A DNA stretch of 64,000 nucleotides from Pseudodesulfovibrio aespoeensis Aspo-2 (GTDB taxonomy: Bacteria; Desulfobacterota; Desulfovibrionia; Desulfovibrionales; Desulfovibrionaceae): the NCBI RefSeq assembly GCF_000176915.2, contig NC_014844.1:62001-126000 (forward strand). Direction: 5' to 3'. This document shows, piece after piece, positions 17,714-28,772 of the stretch (position 1 is its first letter; each line of letters opens with the position of its first letter). The notes beneath the pieces are model-generated. The model worked only from the letters and a program-made list of their open reading frames with translations, did not search any database and was not told the DNA's origin. The position numbers and the translations under genes are program-made.

Positions 17714-18652
17714 ATGAGCAGCAAAGTTCTTGTCACCGGCGGCGCCGGTTATCTCGGTTCGACACTGGTTCCGCAACTCCTTGCCAATGGGTATGAAGTC
17801 ACGGCGCTCGACAACCTGATGTTCAGTCAGGCCCCGCTTCTGGATTGTTGCCATTATCCGGGATTCGAGTTCGTCAAGGGCGACATCTGCGATTACGCCC
17901 TCATGGACAAGCTCATCGCCAAGCACGACATCATCATTCCCCTGGCCGCCATTGTCGGCGCGCCCGCCTGCAAGATGAACCCCACGCTGACGGACCTGGT
18001 CAACAAGCAGGCCCACATGCACATCGTCAAGCAGACCTCCAAGGACCAGATCGTCATCTTCCCCACCACCAACTCCGGCTATGGAATCGGTGAAAAAGAC
18101 GCGTACTGCACCGAAGAGAGCCCGTTGCGCCCGATCTCCGAGTACGGCGTGTGCAAGGTGGCGGTGGAAAAGGCGTTTCTGGACAAGGGGTCCGCAGTCA
18201 CCTTCCGGCTGGCCACTGTTTTCGGCATGAGCCCGCGCATGCGCATGGACCTGCTGGTGAACGACTTCACCTATCAGGCCTTCAAGACCCGGTCGGTCAT
18301 CCTTTTCGAGGACCACTTCAGGCGCAACTACATCCATGTCAGGGACGTGACTAAGGCGTTCATCTGGGGCATCGAGCACTACGAGACGATGCAGGGCCAG
18401 GCGTTCAACGTCGGCCTGTCCACGGCCAACCTCACCAAGCGCCAGCTGGCCGAGAAGATCGGCGAGCATGTCGAGGGCTTTTACATCCACTCCGCCGCCA
18501 TCGGCGAAGACCCGGACAAGCGGGACTATCTCGTGTCCAACGACAAGATCGAGGGGCTGGGCTGGCGTCCGGACCACGACCTTGATATGGGTATCAGGGA
18601 ACTGCTCAAGGGCTACCGCATCCTCAAGCCGAACCTCTACGCGAACGTCTAG
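17714..18652 (+). CDS. SDR oxidoreductase resembling the GDP-heptose C4-dehydrogenase Cj1427
   Basis: This 312-aa extended SDR has [16 protein letters not shown] for NAD binding and YGVCK in the active-site YxxxK position. From memory of the Campylobacter jejuni capsule locus, the protein closely resembles Cj1427: shared blocks include [46 protein letters not shown] and [11 protein letters not shown]. Cj1427 oxidises C4 of GDP-D-glycero-D-manno-heptose. It is the first gene of an operon that also holds HddA- and HddC-like genes, which fits a GDP-heptose substrate. The substrate itself is inferred. Confidence 0.85.
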
Positions 18653-18653
18653 T

Positions 18654-19391
18654 GTGTTGATTACCGAGACACCGGCAATCATCCTGGCGGGCGGCAGGGG
18701 AACGCGCCTGCAAAGCGTGGTGTCGGACCGGCCCAAGGTGCTGGCCGATGTCGCGGGGCGTCCCTACCTCGCCCTTGTCCTGGACCGCCTCCAGCGGTTG
18801 GGCGTGCCGCTGGCCGTCCTCTCCACCGGCTACATGGCCGGGGCGGTGGAGGAGGCCATCGGGAGCAGCCATGCGGGCATGCCTGTGCGGTACGCCCGCG
18901 AGGACAGCCCGCTGGGCACGGGCGGCGGCGCGGCCCTGGCCGCATCCCTGGTCAGTGCGCCCTGGTATCTCGTGCTCAACGGCGATTCCTGGTGCGAGAC
19001 CGACCTGGCCCGGTTCGTGGCCGCTGTTCCCGAGGACTGCGATGCGGGCATGCTGCTCACGCGGGTGCCTGATGTTTCCAGGTACGGGGCGGTGCAGGTC
19101 GGTCCGGGCAGCCGGATCGAGTCCTTCCGGGAGAAAGGGGCCGGCCCGGACTCCAAGGCCGGGCTCGACAGGGCCGGACTCATTAACGCCGGGGTCTACC
19201 TGCTCTCCAGGCGGTGCCTGGATGGCATGGGCGGCGCGGCGCCCCGCTCGCTTGAGCGGGACGTGTTCCCTTTTCTTGCCGTGCAGGGGCGGATTTACGG
19301 ACACATGGTCGAGGCCCCTTTCATTGACATAGGCACCCCCGAATCCTATGCGCGGGTGCTCCCATTTTTCAAGGAAGCCCAGAACAGATGA
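18654..19391 (+). CDS. hddC: Sugar-phosphate nucleotidyltransferase, HddC-like
   Basis: The 245-aa protein has the nucleotidyltransferase signature AGGRGTRLQSVVSDRPKVLA near the N-terminus and VLNGDSWCETDL for metal binding. HddC transfers GMP to D-glycero-alpha-D-manno-heptose 1-phosphate; the next gene is an HddA-like kinase, which supports that call. No ATG lies at the right place. GTG 18654 (or TTG 18657) follows the upstream stop directly and gives the normal N-terminus LITETPAIILAGG. The stop overlaps the kinase ATG. Glucose-1-phosphate-type specificity cannot be ruled out. Confidence 0.8.
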   Translation: MLITETPAIILAGGRGTRLQSVVSDRPKVLADVAGRPYLALVLDRLQRLGVPLAVLSTGYMAGAVEEAIGSSHAGMPVRYAREDSPLGTGGGAALAASLVSAPWYLVLNGDSWCETDLARFVAAVPEDCDAGMLLTRVPDVSRYGAVQVGPGSRIESFREKGAGPDSKAGLDRAGLINAGVYLLSRRCLDGMGGAAPRSLERDVFPFLAVQGRIYGHMVEAPFIDIGTPESYARVLPFFKEAQNR

Positions 19392-26565: not shown

Positions 26566-27309
26566 TTGGCGTTTCTTGAAGGCAAGACCGGGGTCCGTCG
26601 CTGGATAGGACCCAAGCGGGTGATACTGCTTGCGCTGTTCGCGTCGCTGTGCTTTGCAGCGTGGCACTTCTGGCGGCAGGGGCTGCTTTCGCCCGCGACC
26701 GTGTTTGTCTATGTCGAGACCAACCCGGTCCTGGCTCCGATCATTTTCGTGCTGCTGTACTCCCTGTGCATCCTGTTCGTGGTGCCAAGCCTGCCCTTCA
26801 ATCTGGCTGCCGGGTTCCTCTGGGGGCCGTATGTGGGCAGCGTGGTCGCCCTGGGCGGGAGCGTGCTGGGATCGGTCGCTGCCTTTGTCTTTGCGCGCAC
26901 GGCACTGGGGCAACCCTTTGCCCGCAAGTTCGACAACCAGCTCGTCTCTTGGATGCAGAAGGAGCTGGAAGAGAAGGGGTGGGGGGTTGTCGGCTTCATT
27001 TGCGTCAACCCCGCGATCCCGCTGGGGCCGCAAAACTTCGTCTTTGGCCTGACTTCCATGCGGCTGTGGACCCTGACCTGGGCCACCACCGTCTTTCTCT
27101 ATCCCCCCGTGCTGGCGGTCAGTTTTCTCGGCGAGGCGACAGGCTCCATGATCCTTGAGGGGGAGAGCCTCGACATTGTCCGCTGGGCCATGCTCGTGTC
27201 CGCCGCCACCGTTGTCCTCGTGGGCTTCCGGGTGCTGATGAAGTTCTATTTTTCGGTCAGGAGAAACCGCCGGGAGAAAGCTCCCTCGTCCTCGAAATCC
27301 GCCAAGTGA
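26566..27309 (+). CDS. VTT/DedA-type (TVP38/TMEM64) membrane protein
   Basis: The 247-aa integral membrane protein has the VTT-domain core LPFNLAAGFLWGPYVGSVVA, GGSVLGSVAAFVFARTALG and, later, NPAIPLGPQNFVFGLTSMR. Related DedA/VTT proteins move lipids, including undecaprenyl phosphate, between membrane leaflets. Next to a polyprenyl-phosphate-type GT2, that role is attractive here (inference). No ATG is in place; TTG 26566 has a strong GGAGG eight bases upstream and is taken as the start. Confidence 0.85.
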   Translation: MAFLEGKTGVRRWIGPKRVILLALFASLCFAAWHFWRQGLLSPATVFVYVETNPVLAPIIFVLLYSLCILFVVPSLPFNLAAGFLWGPYVGSVVALGGSVLGSVAAFVFARTALGQPFARKFDNQLVSWMQKELEEKGWGVVGFICVNPAIPLGPQNFVFGLTSMRLWTLTWATTVFLYPPVLAVSFLGEATGSMILEGESLDIVRWAMLVSAATVVLVGFRVLMKFYFSVRRNRREKAPSSSKSAK

Positions 27310-27317
27310 AGGATCGC

Positions 27318-28772
27318 ATGAACAAGACCGCCACCCTGACCATTGCGTTTGTCGCCCTTGTGGCGCTTTTCCCCCTGCTGCTGCCCCAGTGGTACCTGTT
27401 CGACAGCGAGGGGCACGCGATGTTCTTCCACACTCAGGACAAGGATTACCTTGAGGACATCGTGCTCCACGGCTGGCACGTCATGTACGGGCTGTTCCTT
27501 GCCATCAACGAGTTGTGGGTCGCCACCGGCATCGCCCCGCAGATGTTCTTCAATGCCCTTGGCGTGATCTCTGTTCTCGGCATCTCGCGCGAGGCCTACG
27601 TCTACCTTCGCGAACGGTTCGATTTTTCGGAATCCTCGGCCATGATCGGGGCGCTTGGGGTGCTGGTCTTCCCAGTCTGGCATGTGCTCATGTCCGCGGT
27701 GTTCACCTCCCATGCCCTGTGCATCTGGCTGTTCATGATCGCCGTCAACCAGTGGCGAAAGCGGCCTCTCCTGGCCCTGCCTCTTTTCCTGGTCTCGCTC
27801 AACCTGTTTTCCCTGTTCGCCCTGGCGGTGGGCGTGGCCGGGGTCGAGTTCCTCATGACGGTGCGCAGAGAGACCTTTGCCCGCCAGGCCGTCCGGACCG
27901 TGGCCTTTTGCGCCGTCCTGGTGGCCCTCTATCTGGTCGCCACGTCCTTCATCAGCGTCCACGGCCACAGTGGGGACTACAACACCTTCAACACCGACCG
28001 GATCGTGTCCTTTGTCAACTTCGGCCTCATGGCCTGCGGCATGCTCGGCGCGTGGTATTTTCTCTTTGGCCGCGCGGGCGACAAGGCCCGGTCCGAGCGC
28101 ATGCTGCGGCTCGTGCTGGCCTTCCTCTCCCTCTCGTTTTTTGCCGGGCTGGCCTACTGGGCCGTGGGCAGGCCCATGCGCTTTCTCGCCTTTGGCAGCT
28201 TCACCGGCAGGCATGCGATGCTCACGGTCATCCCCTTTGCCCTGCTCCTGGCCATGGGTGCGGAGTGCCTGCGCACACGCTGGGGTGCAACCATGATGCG
28301 GTACGCCATGGGGGTTGTTCTGGCAGTCTCGGTCGTGGTCCTGTACCAGGGATACGACCACAAGGCCGCTGCGCTGCTCTTCAAGGACATGCTGGTCCAT
28401 TCGCTCAGGCAGGTGGAGACGCCCCCGTCCGGATACGTCTCCATCGCGGAGTCGGGCTACAAGGCTCCCCGCCATGTCCACCATTTTTCCATCAACATGT
28501 GCTTTTTCCGCGCCTATGGGCGCGGGGAGTGGATGGCTAACGGCTTTTGGGCCAGACGCGGCCATGTCTACAGCCATGAGGATCTCGTGAAGATATACGA
28601 TGGGCCGCAGCGCAGCAAGAAGCTGTCCCTGGCCTTTGAGGCCACGGGCGACGCCTTCACCCGCTATGACTTTGTCCTCGACAACTACCACCAGGAGGGC
28701 CGCCCCTGGTATTGGTACAACTACCTGTTCAACGACTATGCGTCCTTCAATCCGAGGCTTGTCAGGCAGTAG
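27318..28772 (+). CDS. Polytopic membrane protein of unknown function
   Basis: I do not recognise this 484-aa protein. It has about ten hydrophobic segments over residues 5-360 and a hydrophilic C-terminal part of about 120 residues rich in aromatic residues (HHFSINMCFFRAYGRGEWMA). This layout, loops plus a soluble tail, recalls lipid-linked-sugar transferases of the GT-C kind. As last gene after a polyprenyl-type GT2 and a VTT protein, a GT-C transferase is a reasonable guess only. ATG 27318 is preferred to GTG 27306 because AAGGA precedes it. Confidence 0.7.
   Translation: MNKTATLTIAFVALVALFPLLLPQWYLFDSEGHAMFFHTQDKDYLEDIVLHGWHVMYGLFLAINELWVATGIAPQMFFNALGVISVLGISREAYVYLRERFDFSESSAMIGALGVLVFPVWHVLMSAVFTSHALCIWLFMIAVNQWRKRPLLALPLFLVSLNLFSLFALAVGVAGVEFLMTVRRETFARQAVRTVAFCAVLVALYLVATSFISVHGHSGDYNTFNTDRIVSFVNFGLMACGMLGAWYFLFGRAGDKARSERMLRLVLAFLSLSFFAGLAYWAVGRPMRFLAFGSFTGRHAMLTVIPFALLLAMGAECLRTRWGATMMRYAMGVVLAVSVVVLYQGYDHKAAALLFKDMLVHSLRQVETPPSGYVSIAESGYKAPRHVHHFSINMCFFRAYGRGEWMANGFWARRGHVYSHEDLVKIYDGPQRSKKLSLAFEATGDAFTRYDFVLDNYHQEGRPWYWYNYLFNDYASFNPRLVRQ

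What the first reader, a model, noticed from the sequence alone, without database searches (positions are those of the whole stretch)
17714..28772. A self-contained pathway to a C3-deoxygenated GDP-heptose, with its own transketolase
Seen: Cj1427-like SDR, HddC-like and HddA-like genes, split transketolase, GDP-fucose-synthase-like SDR and a ColD-like enzyme with His in place of the PLP lysine (FYFAHHMSTVEGG), in one coupled operon. Known: Cj1427 oxidises C4 of GDP-heptose, Cj1428-like enzymes reduce it, and ColD removes the C3 hydroxyl of a 4-keto sugar. Inference: transketolase makes sedoheptulose 7-phosphate, then GDP-heptose is oxidised, deoxygenated at C3 and reduced. The dedicated transketolase, the missing 4,6-dehydratase and the B12 radical SAM enzyme make the product different from known Campylobacter heptoses. 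A two-carbon branch added by the transketolase is the rival idea.
Basis: partly seen in the sequence, partly recalled or inferred. Interest (0 to 1): 0.72.

Follow-up and report, generated by a model that had tools for sequence, protein, structure and literature searches.

The report
Operon for a branched nine-carbon sugar
An operon in a sulfate-reducing bacterium looks able to build an unusual surface sugar by removing one oxygen from a seven-carbon sugar and then attaching a two-carbon branch, and related bacteria repeatedly swap one enzyme family for another at the branching step.

Summary
The genes are as described. GDP-heptose oxidised at C4 and deoxygenated at C3 is well supported. A transketolase (TK) supplying sedoheptulose 7-phosphate is not: two full-length TKs lie elsewhere in the genome, and this one has lost sugar-phosphate and donor residues (H26R, H100I, S385P, H461G, D469S, R520G). 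Of 31 loci with a close dehydrogenase homologue, 11 carry both TK halves, 15 a PDH-E1-like pair (in some in the same slot), one a TK half at a contig end, and 4 nothing (3 cut by contig ends). The TK label changes at least 6 times on the dehydrogenase tree. Plain HddA loci have such an enzyme in 1 of 41. His-type dehydratase genes occur in 23 loci (21 with both halves, 2 with one half seen at an edge), Lys-type in 8, none with any. Best reading: yersiniose-like two-carbon branching of a GDP-3-deoxy-4-keto-heptose, giving a nine-carbon sugar, probably with an acetyl branch from pyruvate (engineered H100L favours pyruvate). One complete locus, in Sinorhizobium fredii, is an exception. No biochemistry was done.

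The parts
17714..18652 (+). SDR1: Cj1427-like GDP-heptose C4-dehydrogenase
   Evidence: 449 bits to PDB 6vo6 over residues 1-311
18654..19391 (+). HddC-like nucleotidyltransferase (GTG start)
   Evidence: PF00483; NF049965 124 bits, cut-off 300
19388..20452 (+). HddA-like GHMP sugar kinase
   Evidence: NF049969 134 bits, cut-off 600; only match in the genome
20463..21284 (+). ThDP carboligase, transketolase-N half; H26R, H100I (E. coli numbering)
   Evidence: PF00456; 6yak; residues
21281..22219 (+). ThDP carboligase, transketolase-C half; S385P, H461G, D469S, R520G; E411 and H473 kept
   Evidence: PF02779/PF02780; 6yaj
22216..23148 (+). SDR2: GDP-fucose-synthase-like epimerase/reductase, SYK plus Cys/His dyad kept (GTG start)
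   Evidence: NF047922 371 bits
23155..24327 (+). ColD-like PLP 3-dehydratase, His at the Lys position
   Evidence: 2gms 163 bits
24333..25811 (+). B12-binding radical SAM enzyme, role unknown; a homologue of 39% or more identity in 21 of 31 SDR1 loci (window counted)
   Evidence: PF02310+PF04055
25840..26547 (+). family 2 glycosyltransferase, AglJ/dolichyl-phosphate-hexose-transferase-like
   Evidence: PF00535; TIGR04182 78 bits, cut-off 325
26566..27309 (+). VTT-domain (DedA/TVP38) membrane protein (TTG start)
   Evidence: PF09335
27306..28772 (+). 488-aa protein without a family, apparently a membrane protein; homologues in 12 of 197 relatives (own genome counted), 10 of them in the same genus; not found beside the other SDR1 loci
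17450..17490 (+). left copy of a 41-bp direct repeat outside the operon
   Evidence: 3 places in the genome
28795..28835 (+). right copy of the direct repeat, 98% identical

Best explanation
The operon makes a GDP-activated, 3-deoxy, C4-branched heptose (nine carbons) by yersiniose-like logic. [quoted passage not shown] SDR1 oxidises C4, reducing alpha-ketoglutarate. The ColD-like enzyme removes the C3 hydroxyl. The split 'transketolase' is a re-purposed ThDP carboligase that adds a two-carbon acyl unit to the C4 ketone, most likely acetyl from pyruvate, giving a tertiary alcohol with a keto branch. SDR2 epimerises C5 and/or reduces the branch ketone. The B12 radical SAM enzyme adds a further, unknown change. 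The GT2 then probably loads the sugar on a lipid carrier for a surface glycan. Shown by sequence: families, order, catalytic and lost residues, co-occurrence, swapping. Inferred: every substrate and product.
For: (1) Of 31 loci with SDR1 at 45% identity or more, 26 carry both halves of a two-subunit ThDP enzyme (11 split TK, 15 E1-like), one (L059) TK-N at a contig end, 4 none, 3 of these cut by contig ends. (2) Among HddA-selected loci, window left out: SDR1+ 13 of 15 with both halves and 1 with one half; SDR1- 8 of 50 and 1 with one half; p=9.5e-7 for both halves, 1.7e-7 for any component. Plain HddA loci: 1 of 41. (3) Same-slot swap: L056, L143 and L144 read SDR1-HddC-GmhB-HddA-E1a-E1b-SDR2-ColD-rSAM; the window reads SDR1-HddC-HddA-TKN-TKC-SDR2-ColD-rSAM. 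(4) TK/E1 type needs 10 changes on the SDR1 tree; well supported branches alone force at least 6 for the TK label. (5) His-type dehydratase in 23 loci: 21 with both halves, L059 and L065 with one half at an edge; Lys-type in 8, none with any. (6) Lost residues H461, S385, R520, D469, H26, H100; ThDP motif, Glu411 and His473 kept. (7) H100F/H100L raise pyruvate use in a Geobacillus TK, and His100 is Phe in DXPS (PMC7661550, passages). (8) Precedents: YerE and AviB1/B2-type enzymes for acetyl at C4 ketones (passages).
Against: No enzyme was assayed. One complete locus, Sinorhizobium fredii L120, has SDR1 without a ThDP pair in 21 kb (its two DegT genes are Lys-type). SDR2 with the fucose-synthase dyad could instead reduce the C4 ketone and leave nothing to branch. 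HddA and HddC are far below their equivalog cut-offs, so the heptose is inferred mainly from SDR1. Operon co-inheritance and shared ancestry inflate the p-values. R358 is kept, and I know of no precedent for H26R. Eight of 50 HddA-selected loci without SDR1 also have a pair (among them L064 and L078 without a GMD-like gene at the cut used). In Campylobacter, Cj1427 works with epimerase and reductase only, no ThDP step described (PMC10680097, sections 14, 17, 19, 24 read; 'transketolase' and 'branched' do not occur in its main text).
Confidence: 0.72

Rival explanations
1. One reading: the split transketolase makes sedoheptulose 7-phosphate for a dedicated heptose pathway.
For: HddA/HddC-like genes are next door, and a TK can make sedoheptulose 7-phosphate. 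One plain HddA locus, L078, also carries a split TK.
Against: Phosphate-site and donor-site residues are lost. Two full-length TKs are elsewhere in the genome, one 66% identical to E. coli TktA over 664 aa. An E1-like pair takes the same slot in related operons. Plain HddA loci lack a TK in 40 of 41. No GmhA or GmhB in the operon.
Confidence: 0.05
2. Unbranched product: SDR2 acts like ColC, epimerising C5 and reducing C4, to give a heptose homologue of L-colitose; the ThDP pair acts on another sugar or makes another precursor.
For: SDR2 keeps the GFS catalytic set and sits beside the ColD-like gene. GDP-3-deoxy-heptoses are chemically accessible this way. That ColC is GFS-like is recalled.
Against: 13 SDR1 loci with both halves of a ThDP enzyme have no SDR2 at 32% or more: L023, L055, L060, L121-L125, L142 and L145 with no RmlC either, and L017, L019, L068 with RmlC (L121 has an SDR2-like hit just under the cut). 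The ThDP enzyme is tied to the His-type dehydratase. In the 3 RmlC loci neither an SDR2 nor an AKR was found by tblastn.
Confidence: 0.17
3. Branching happens, but the donor gives a hydroxyacetyl unit (hydroxypyruvate or a ketose), as proposed for miharamycin and amipurimycin.
For: TK ancestry; the other 14 of 25 TK-N rows keep H26 and H100. Split TKs were proposed for hydroxyacetyl transfer (PMC12247030, passages).
Against: In the window's own clade H26 and H100 are Arg and Ile in 11 of 11 rows. H100L/F in a TK favours pyruvate. The swapped-in E1-like enzymes match pyruvate dehydrogenase E1 models.
Confidence: 0.25

Closest known systems
Yersiniose A pathway (YerE; reductase YerF recalled) in Yersinia O-antigen
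   Same: C3 deoxygenation of a 4-keto nucleotide sugar, then ThDP-dependent C2 branching at C4, then ketone reduction
   Different: Yersiniose uses a CDP-hexose and one decarboxylase-type flavoenzyme; here a GDP-heptose and a two-subunit TK-like or E1-like enzyme; the Pfam scan of the operon shows no such single-chain enzyme
alphaKADH2 branching enzymes (AviB1/AviB2, Pau11/Pau12, KbDH)
   Same: Two-subunit ThDP enzyme adding an acetyl branch from pyruvate to a sugar ketone; the related loci use E1-like pairs
   Different: Known from antibiotics; no sequence of them was compared here; the window has a TK-derived pair instead, in a glycan-type operon
Split TKs of miharamycin and amipurimycin clusters
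   Same: Split TK proposed to branch a keto sugar
   Different: Proposed for hydroxyacetyl and not tested in vitro; the 13 putative ones noted in the review all come from Streptomycetes (PMC12247030, passages); substrate here is a GDP-heptose; their sequences were not compared
Campylobacter GDP-heptose modification (Cj1427, C3-dehydratase, epimerases, reductases)
   Same: Same first steps; the C4-dehydrogenase is a close homologue
   Different: No ThDP step described there; 3-deoxygenation there occurs in 6-deoxy-heptoses, except in the in vitro combinations
Colitose pathway (ColD, ColC)
   Same: His-type PLP 3-dehydratase followed by a GFS-like SDR (ColC recalled)
   Different: Hexose substrate with 4,6-dehydratase; no branching

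Membership tests
Cj1427-type GDP-heptose C4-dehydrogenase | Full-length close sequence match | tested here: met
   449 bits to 6vo6, next 80 bits; identity of 6vo6 as Cj1427 is recalled
Cj1427-type GDP-heptose C4-dehydrogenase | Bound NADH re-oxidised by alpha-ketoglutarate | not testable with these tools
   Indirect: an L-2-hydroxyglutarate oxidase gene lies in the same fetched stretch as SDR1 in 5 of 31 loci
ColD-type PLP 3-dehydratase | His in place of the PLP lysine | tested here: met
ColD-type PLP 3-dehydratase | Loss of the C3 hydroxyl of a GDP-4-keto sugar | not testable with these tools
   no assay
Transketolase (EC 2.2.1.1) | ThDP fold and cofactor residues (GDG, N185, H66, E411, H473) | tested here: met
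Transketolase (EC 2.2.1.1) | Substrate residues H26, H100, S385, H461, D469, R520 | tested here: not met
   R, I, P, G, S, G in the window; so not filed as a transketolase
HddA / HddC | NCBIfam equivalog cut-off | tested here: not met
   134 of 600 and 124 of 300 bits; filed only as HddA-like and HddC-like
GDP-L-fucose synthase | NCBIfam equivalog cut-off | tested here: not met
   371 of 500 bits
GDP-L-fucose synthase | SYK triad and Cys109/His179 epimerase dyad | tested here: met
   role of the dyad from PMC7949155 (passage)
YerE-type branching enzyme | Single-chain decarboxylase-superfamily ThDP enzyme | tested here: not met
   Pfam finds TK domains in two chains
Branched-chain (C4) nucleotide sugar pathway | ThDP carboligase together with a 4-keto former and a 3-dehydratase | tested here: met
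Branched-chain (C4) nucleotide sugar pathway | Branched product | not testable with these tools
   needs NMR/MS

The most novel reading that the evidence does not exclude
A clade of split transketolases (single origin on the tree, marked by H26R and H100I) has become a pyruvate-using carboligase that branches the C4 ketone of GDP-3-deoxy-heptose. It is functionally interchangeable with PDH-E1-like pairs in the same operon slot, so that bacteria of at least two phyla make an undescribed family of nine-carbon GDP-sugars, further modified by a B12 radical SAM enzyme, for their surface glycans.
Probability: 0.45. Interest if true: 0.86.

Novelty: new variant of a known kind. Interest (0 to 1): 0.74.

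Why it matters
A 2025 review leaves open whether transketolases really branch keto sugars and places TK and alphaKADH2 branching mainly in antibiotics (PMC12247030, passages read). These operons put both enzyme types, swapping for one another, beside one substrate-forming enzyme in glycan-type loci, which makes the question directly testable with soluble enzymes and an acceptor that has already been synthesised (PMC10680097 section 24). They would also give a natural counterpart of the engineered TK donor switch at His100, and a new class of branched GDP-sugar.

Tried and rejected
Sedoheptulose 7-phosphate supply by the TK: rejected on lost residues, other TKs in the genome and the E1 swap. 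A reading in which loci without TK also lack branching: dropped when one search showed E1-like pairs there. SDR2 as plain Cj1428 homologue: not tested directly, closest solved matches are GDP-fucose synthases. ColD-like 29-32% relatives as aminotransferases: rejected where they carry His. SDR1-like genes at 40-43% (L139, L141; a short piece in L095) as members: left out of the 31; L139 and L141 have Lys-type DegT genes and, in the stretches held, no HddA and no ThDP pair. The 45% cut was set after seeing the gap between 47% and 43%. L140 was dropped from the count as the other half of the SDR1 of L059 (same genome, both at contig ends; assumed). The viral-contig scan for SDR1 found nothing; phage hits for TK-N were 38% or less. 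The residues at 434/437/440 aligned differently and were not used. L004 was misaligned; only its tblastn identity is used. The two TK-C genes of L022 (one beside a full-length-TK-like hit) keep H461 and were left out. The row L060 is really the E1-beta gene. Structure prediction was not run. A Pfam search of the 488-aa protein gave nothing above cut-off.

Limits of the counts: of 70 HddA places in 68 of 395 genomes, 66 were examined (window included); G400, G310, G523 and the second G277 place were not fetched. L014, L015 and L016 came in by a TK search and so favour TK; the p-values for SDR1 use HddA-selected loci only and leave out the window. Loci were scored by tblastn to proteins of the window and of related loci, so remote homologues may be missed. 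Fisher p-values ignore shared ancestry.
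Full report
WHAT IS THERE. The operon at 17714-28772 is real. Eleven + strand genes are open and overlap by 4 bases or lie at most 28 bases apart. SDR1 is a full-length close homologue of PDB 6vo6 (449 bits; next best 80), which I recall to be Cj1427. HddC-like and HddA-like proteins belong to their families but lie far below the NCBIfam equivalog cut-offs. The transketolase is split in two chains, nearest in the PDB to the Carboxydothermus split TK. 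SDR2 is nearest to GDP-L-fucose synthase and keeps its Ser, Cys109, Tyr, Lys and His179; the Cys/His pair is the epimerisation dyad of that enzyme (PMC7949155, passage). The ColD-like protein has His at the PLP-lysine position. Then come a B12 radical SAM enzyme, a family 2 glycosyltransferase, a VTT-domain protein and a 488-aa protein without a family.

PRECURSOR. [quoted passage not shown] HddA has no second match.

THE TRANSKETOLASE IS NOT A NORMAL ONE. Aligned to E. coli TktA, the window TK has R, I, P, G, S, G for H26, H100, S385, H461, D469, R520, while H66, the GDG/Asn ThDP motif, H261, R358, D381, E411 and H473 are kept. S385 is known to interact with substrate phosphate, and H26 and H261 hydrogen-bond the aldehyde in docking (PMC5073344, passages). 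H461 is Gly in 23 of 23 split TK-C sequences, while the TK L003 of the same genome keeps all six residues; L022, which keeps H461, was left out. The H26R/H100I pair marks one clade of 11 rows, supported 100/100, which includes two Nitrospirota loci, L015 and L016; in the stretches held for these two, TK and radical SAM genes (and GT2 in L015) but no SDR1 or HddA were found. In a Geobacillus TK, H100F and H100L raised activity with pyruvate, and DXPS has Phe there (PMC7661550, passages). Two full-length TKs elsewhere (66% and 44% identical to TktA) can cover normal metabolism. I infer a ThDP carboligase with changed donor and acceptor, pyruvate being the likelier donor.

COMPARATIVE TEST. Close TK-N homologues are sporadic: 3 of 197 relatives and 7 of 297 genomes of the phylum at E 1e-55 or better, own genome counted. 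HddA-like genes were sought in 395 genomes of the phylum (68 with a match, 70 places); 66 places were examined (window). SDR1 was sought in 395 (20 with a match), in 197 relatives (8) and in plasmids (7 records). Loci were scored by tblastn. Of 31 loci with SDR1 at 45% identity or more, 11 have both halves of a split TK, L059 the N half at a contig end, 15 both halves of a PDH-E1-alpha/beta-like pair (Pfam E1_dh with Transket_pyr/Transketolase_C in the four loci scanned; pyruvate dehydrogenase E1 models in NCBIfam, below cut-off, in two scanned) and 4 neither. Of these 4, L071, L137 and L138 end at contig ends (the genome of L137 carries TK and HddA on another contig, L018); L120 (Sinorhizobium fredii) is a true exception. 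Among HddA-selected loci without the window, both halves occur in 13 of 15 SDR1+ loci (1 more with one half) and 8 of 50 SDR1- loci (1 more with one half), Fisher p=9.5e-7; counting any component, 14 of 15 against 9 of 50, p=1.7e-7. In plain HddA loci (HddA under 48%, no GMD-like gene) it is 1 of 41, L078. Some SDR1- loci with a TK carry a GMD-like gene, another way to a 4-ketone (L062, L069, L070; L021 just under the 29% cut); L080 has a GMD-like gene and no ThDP enzyme.

SLOT SWAP. L056, L143 and L144, of the same family as the window, have SDR1-HddC-GmhB-HddA-E1a-E1b-SDR2-ColD-rSAM (then GT2 in L056 and L143), the window's order with the TK pair replaced. Solidesulfovibrio magneticus plasmid pDMC1 has kinase-E1a-E1b-GFS-DegT-SDR1-HddC in one run. 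Azospirillum plasmids show both types (L121 and L125 TK; L122-L124 E1). On a tree of 31 SDR1 rows (L139 and L141 in, L059 and L138 out; 26 rows with a type) TK against E1 needs 10 changes. Each label needs about as many changes as shuffled labels do (TK 10, shuffled mean 9.3; E1 12, shuffled mean 10.7), and well supported branches alone force at least 6 for the TK label (8 for the E1 label, which sets pairless rows against E1). Many deeper forks of that tree are weak. One position kept filled while the enzyme family changes is what interchangeable enzymes look like; by its family an E1-like pair would not supply sedoheptulose 7-phosphate.

COUPLING TO DEOXYGENATION. The residue at the PLP-lysine position was scored in 31 loci with a DegT-like gene: His in 23 (21 with both halves of a ThDP enzyme; L059 and L065 with one half seen, at a contig end and at the edge of the fetched stretch), Lys in 8 (none with any; these include the exception L120 and the distant L139 and L141) (p=5.7e-6, ancestry ignored). 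Deoxygenation at C3 before branching at C4 is the yersiniose order (CDP-3,6-dideoxy-4-keto-glucose is the YerE acceptor; PMC12247030, passages).

REDUCTASE. SDR2 (35% or more) occurs in 14 of 31 SDR1 loci and RmlC-like epimerases in 3, never together. Ten loci with both halves have neither, so the ketone is not always removed by SDR2. Whether SDR2 acts as C5 epimerase, as branch reductase or both is open. Paulomycin uses an aldo-keto reductase for the branch (PMC4753412, passages); an AKR gene lies in L121, L021, L062 and L065.

COSUBSTRATE RECYCLING. Cj1427 reduces alpha-ketoglutarate to L-2-hydroxyglutarate (PMC10680097 section 19). An L-2-hydroxyglutarate oxidase (NF008726 328 bits, cut-off 299, for the one scanned) lies in the stretch of 5 of 31 SDR1 loci and, among 58 other loci, only in L015, which has the TK. 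The window's genome has one elsewhere (46%). This fits the Cj1427 mechanism; recycling is my inference.

RELATION TO PRINT. [quoted passage not shown] the window looks like a natural use of the first two steps. The rows listed by searches showed no paper on a ThDP-branched heptose; only the top rows were listed, and most subscription papers are not held. The 2025 review (passages read) states that TK branching of sugars is still unproven and that TK and alphaKADH2 branching is mainly known from antibiotics.

MOBILITY. SDR1 occurs in 8 of 197 relatives, the window's own genome being the only one of its genus among them. A 41-bp direct repeat (98%) stands at 17450-17490 and 28795-28835, just outside the operon, with a diverged copy at the 3' end of the photolyase gene; there are three such places in the genome. 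The operon looks like an acquired cassette.

CONFIDENCE. Branching of a 4-keto sugar by the ThDP pair: 0.72. Acetyl from pyruvate in the window's clade: about 0.5. Heptose backbone: about 0.85. Role of the radical SAM enzyme and acceptor glycan: unknown.

Noticed in passing
17450-17490 and 28795-28835 (diverged copy 16915-17006): 41-bp direct repeats, 98% identical, stand just outside the operon on both sides; only three such places in the genome, suggesting an inserted cassette beside the photolyase gene.
   Followed up: partly
L025 (own genome C1:2165000-2183000): A second split transketolase with H461G but H26 and H100 kept, beside an SDR and a weak GmhA-like hit: probably another unusual sugar pathway.
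   Followed up: partly
L020, L061, L063, L119, L145, L015: L-2-hydroxyglutarate oxidase genes in the same stretch as the Cj1427-like gene or (L015) the TK, a likely recycling partner for the alpha-ketoglutarate-dependent dehydrogenase.
   Followed up: partly
L021, L062, L069, L070: HddA loci with GMD-like genes (29-33% as printed) also carry the TK; L021 and L062 have an aldo-keto reductase too, which suggests branched 6-deoxy-heptoses.
   Followed up: no
L078: The only plain HddA locus with a TK; its TK groups with that of L025 (94/94), not with the window's clade.
   Followed up: no
L017, L119, L137, L142: NUDIX genes (60-63% identity to that of L119) recur beside HddA or HddC in these operons; role unknown.
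   Followed up: no
30118-30999: Transposase gene (PF13808, PF01609) downstream of the operon.
   Followed up: no
31399-37749: MptE-like (PF01973) protein, methyltransferase and glycosyltransferases, one with a radical SAM/SPASM part: a glycosylation-type region that may use the sugar.
   Followed up: no
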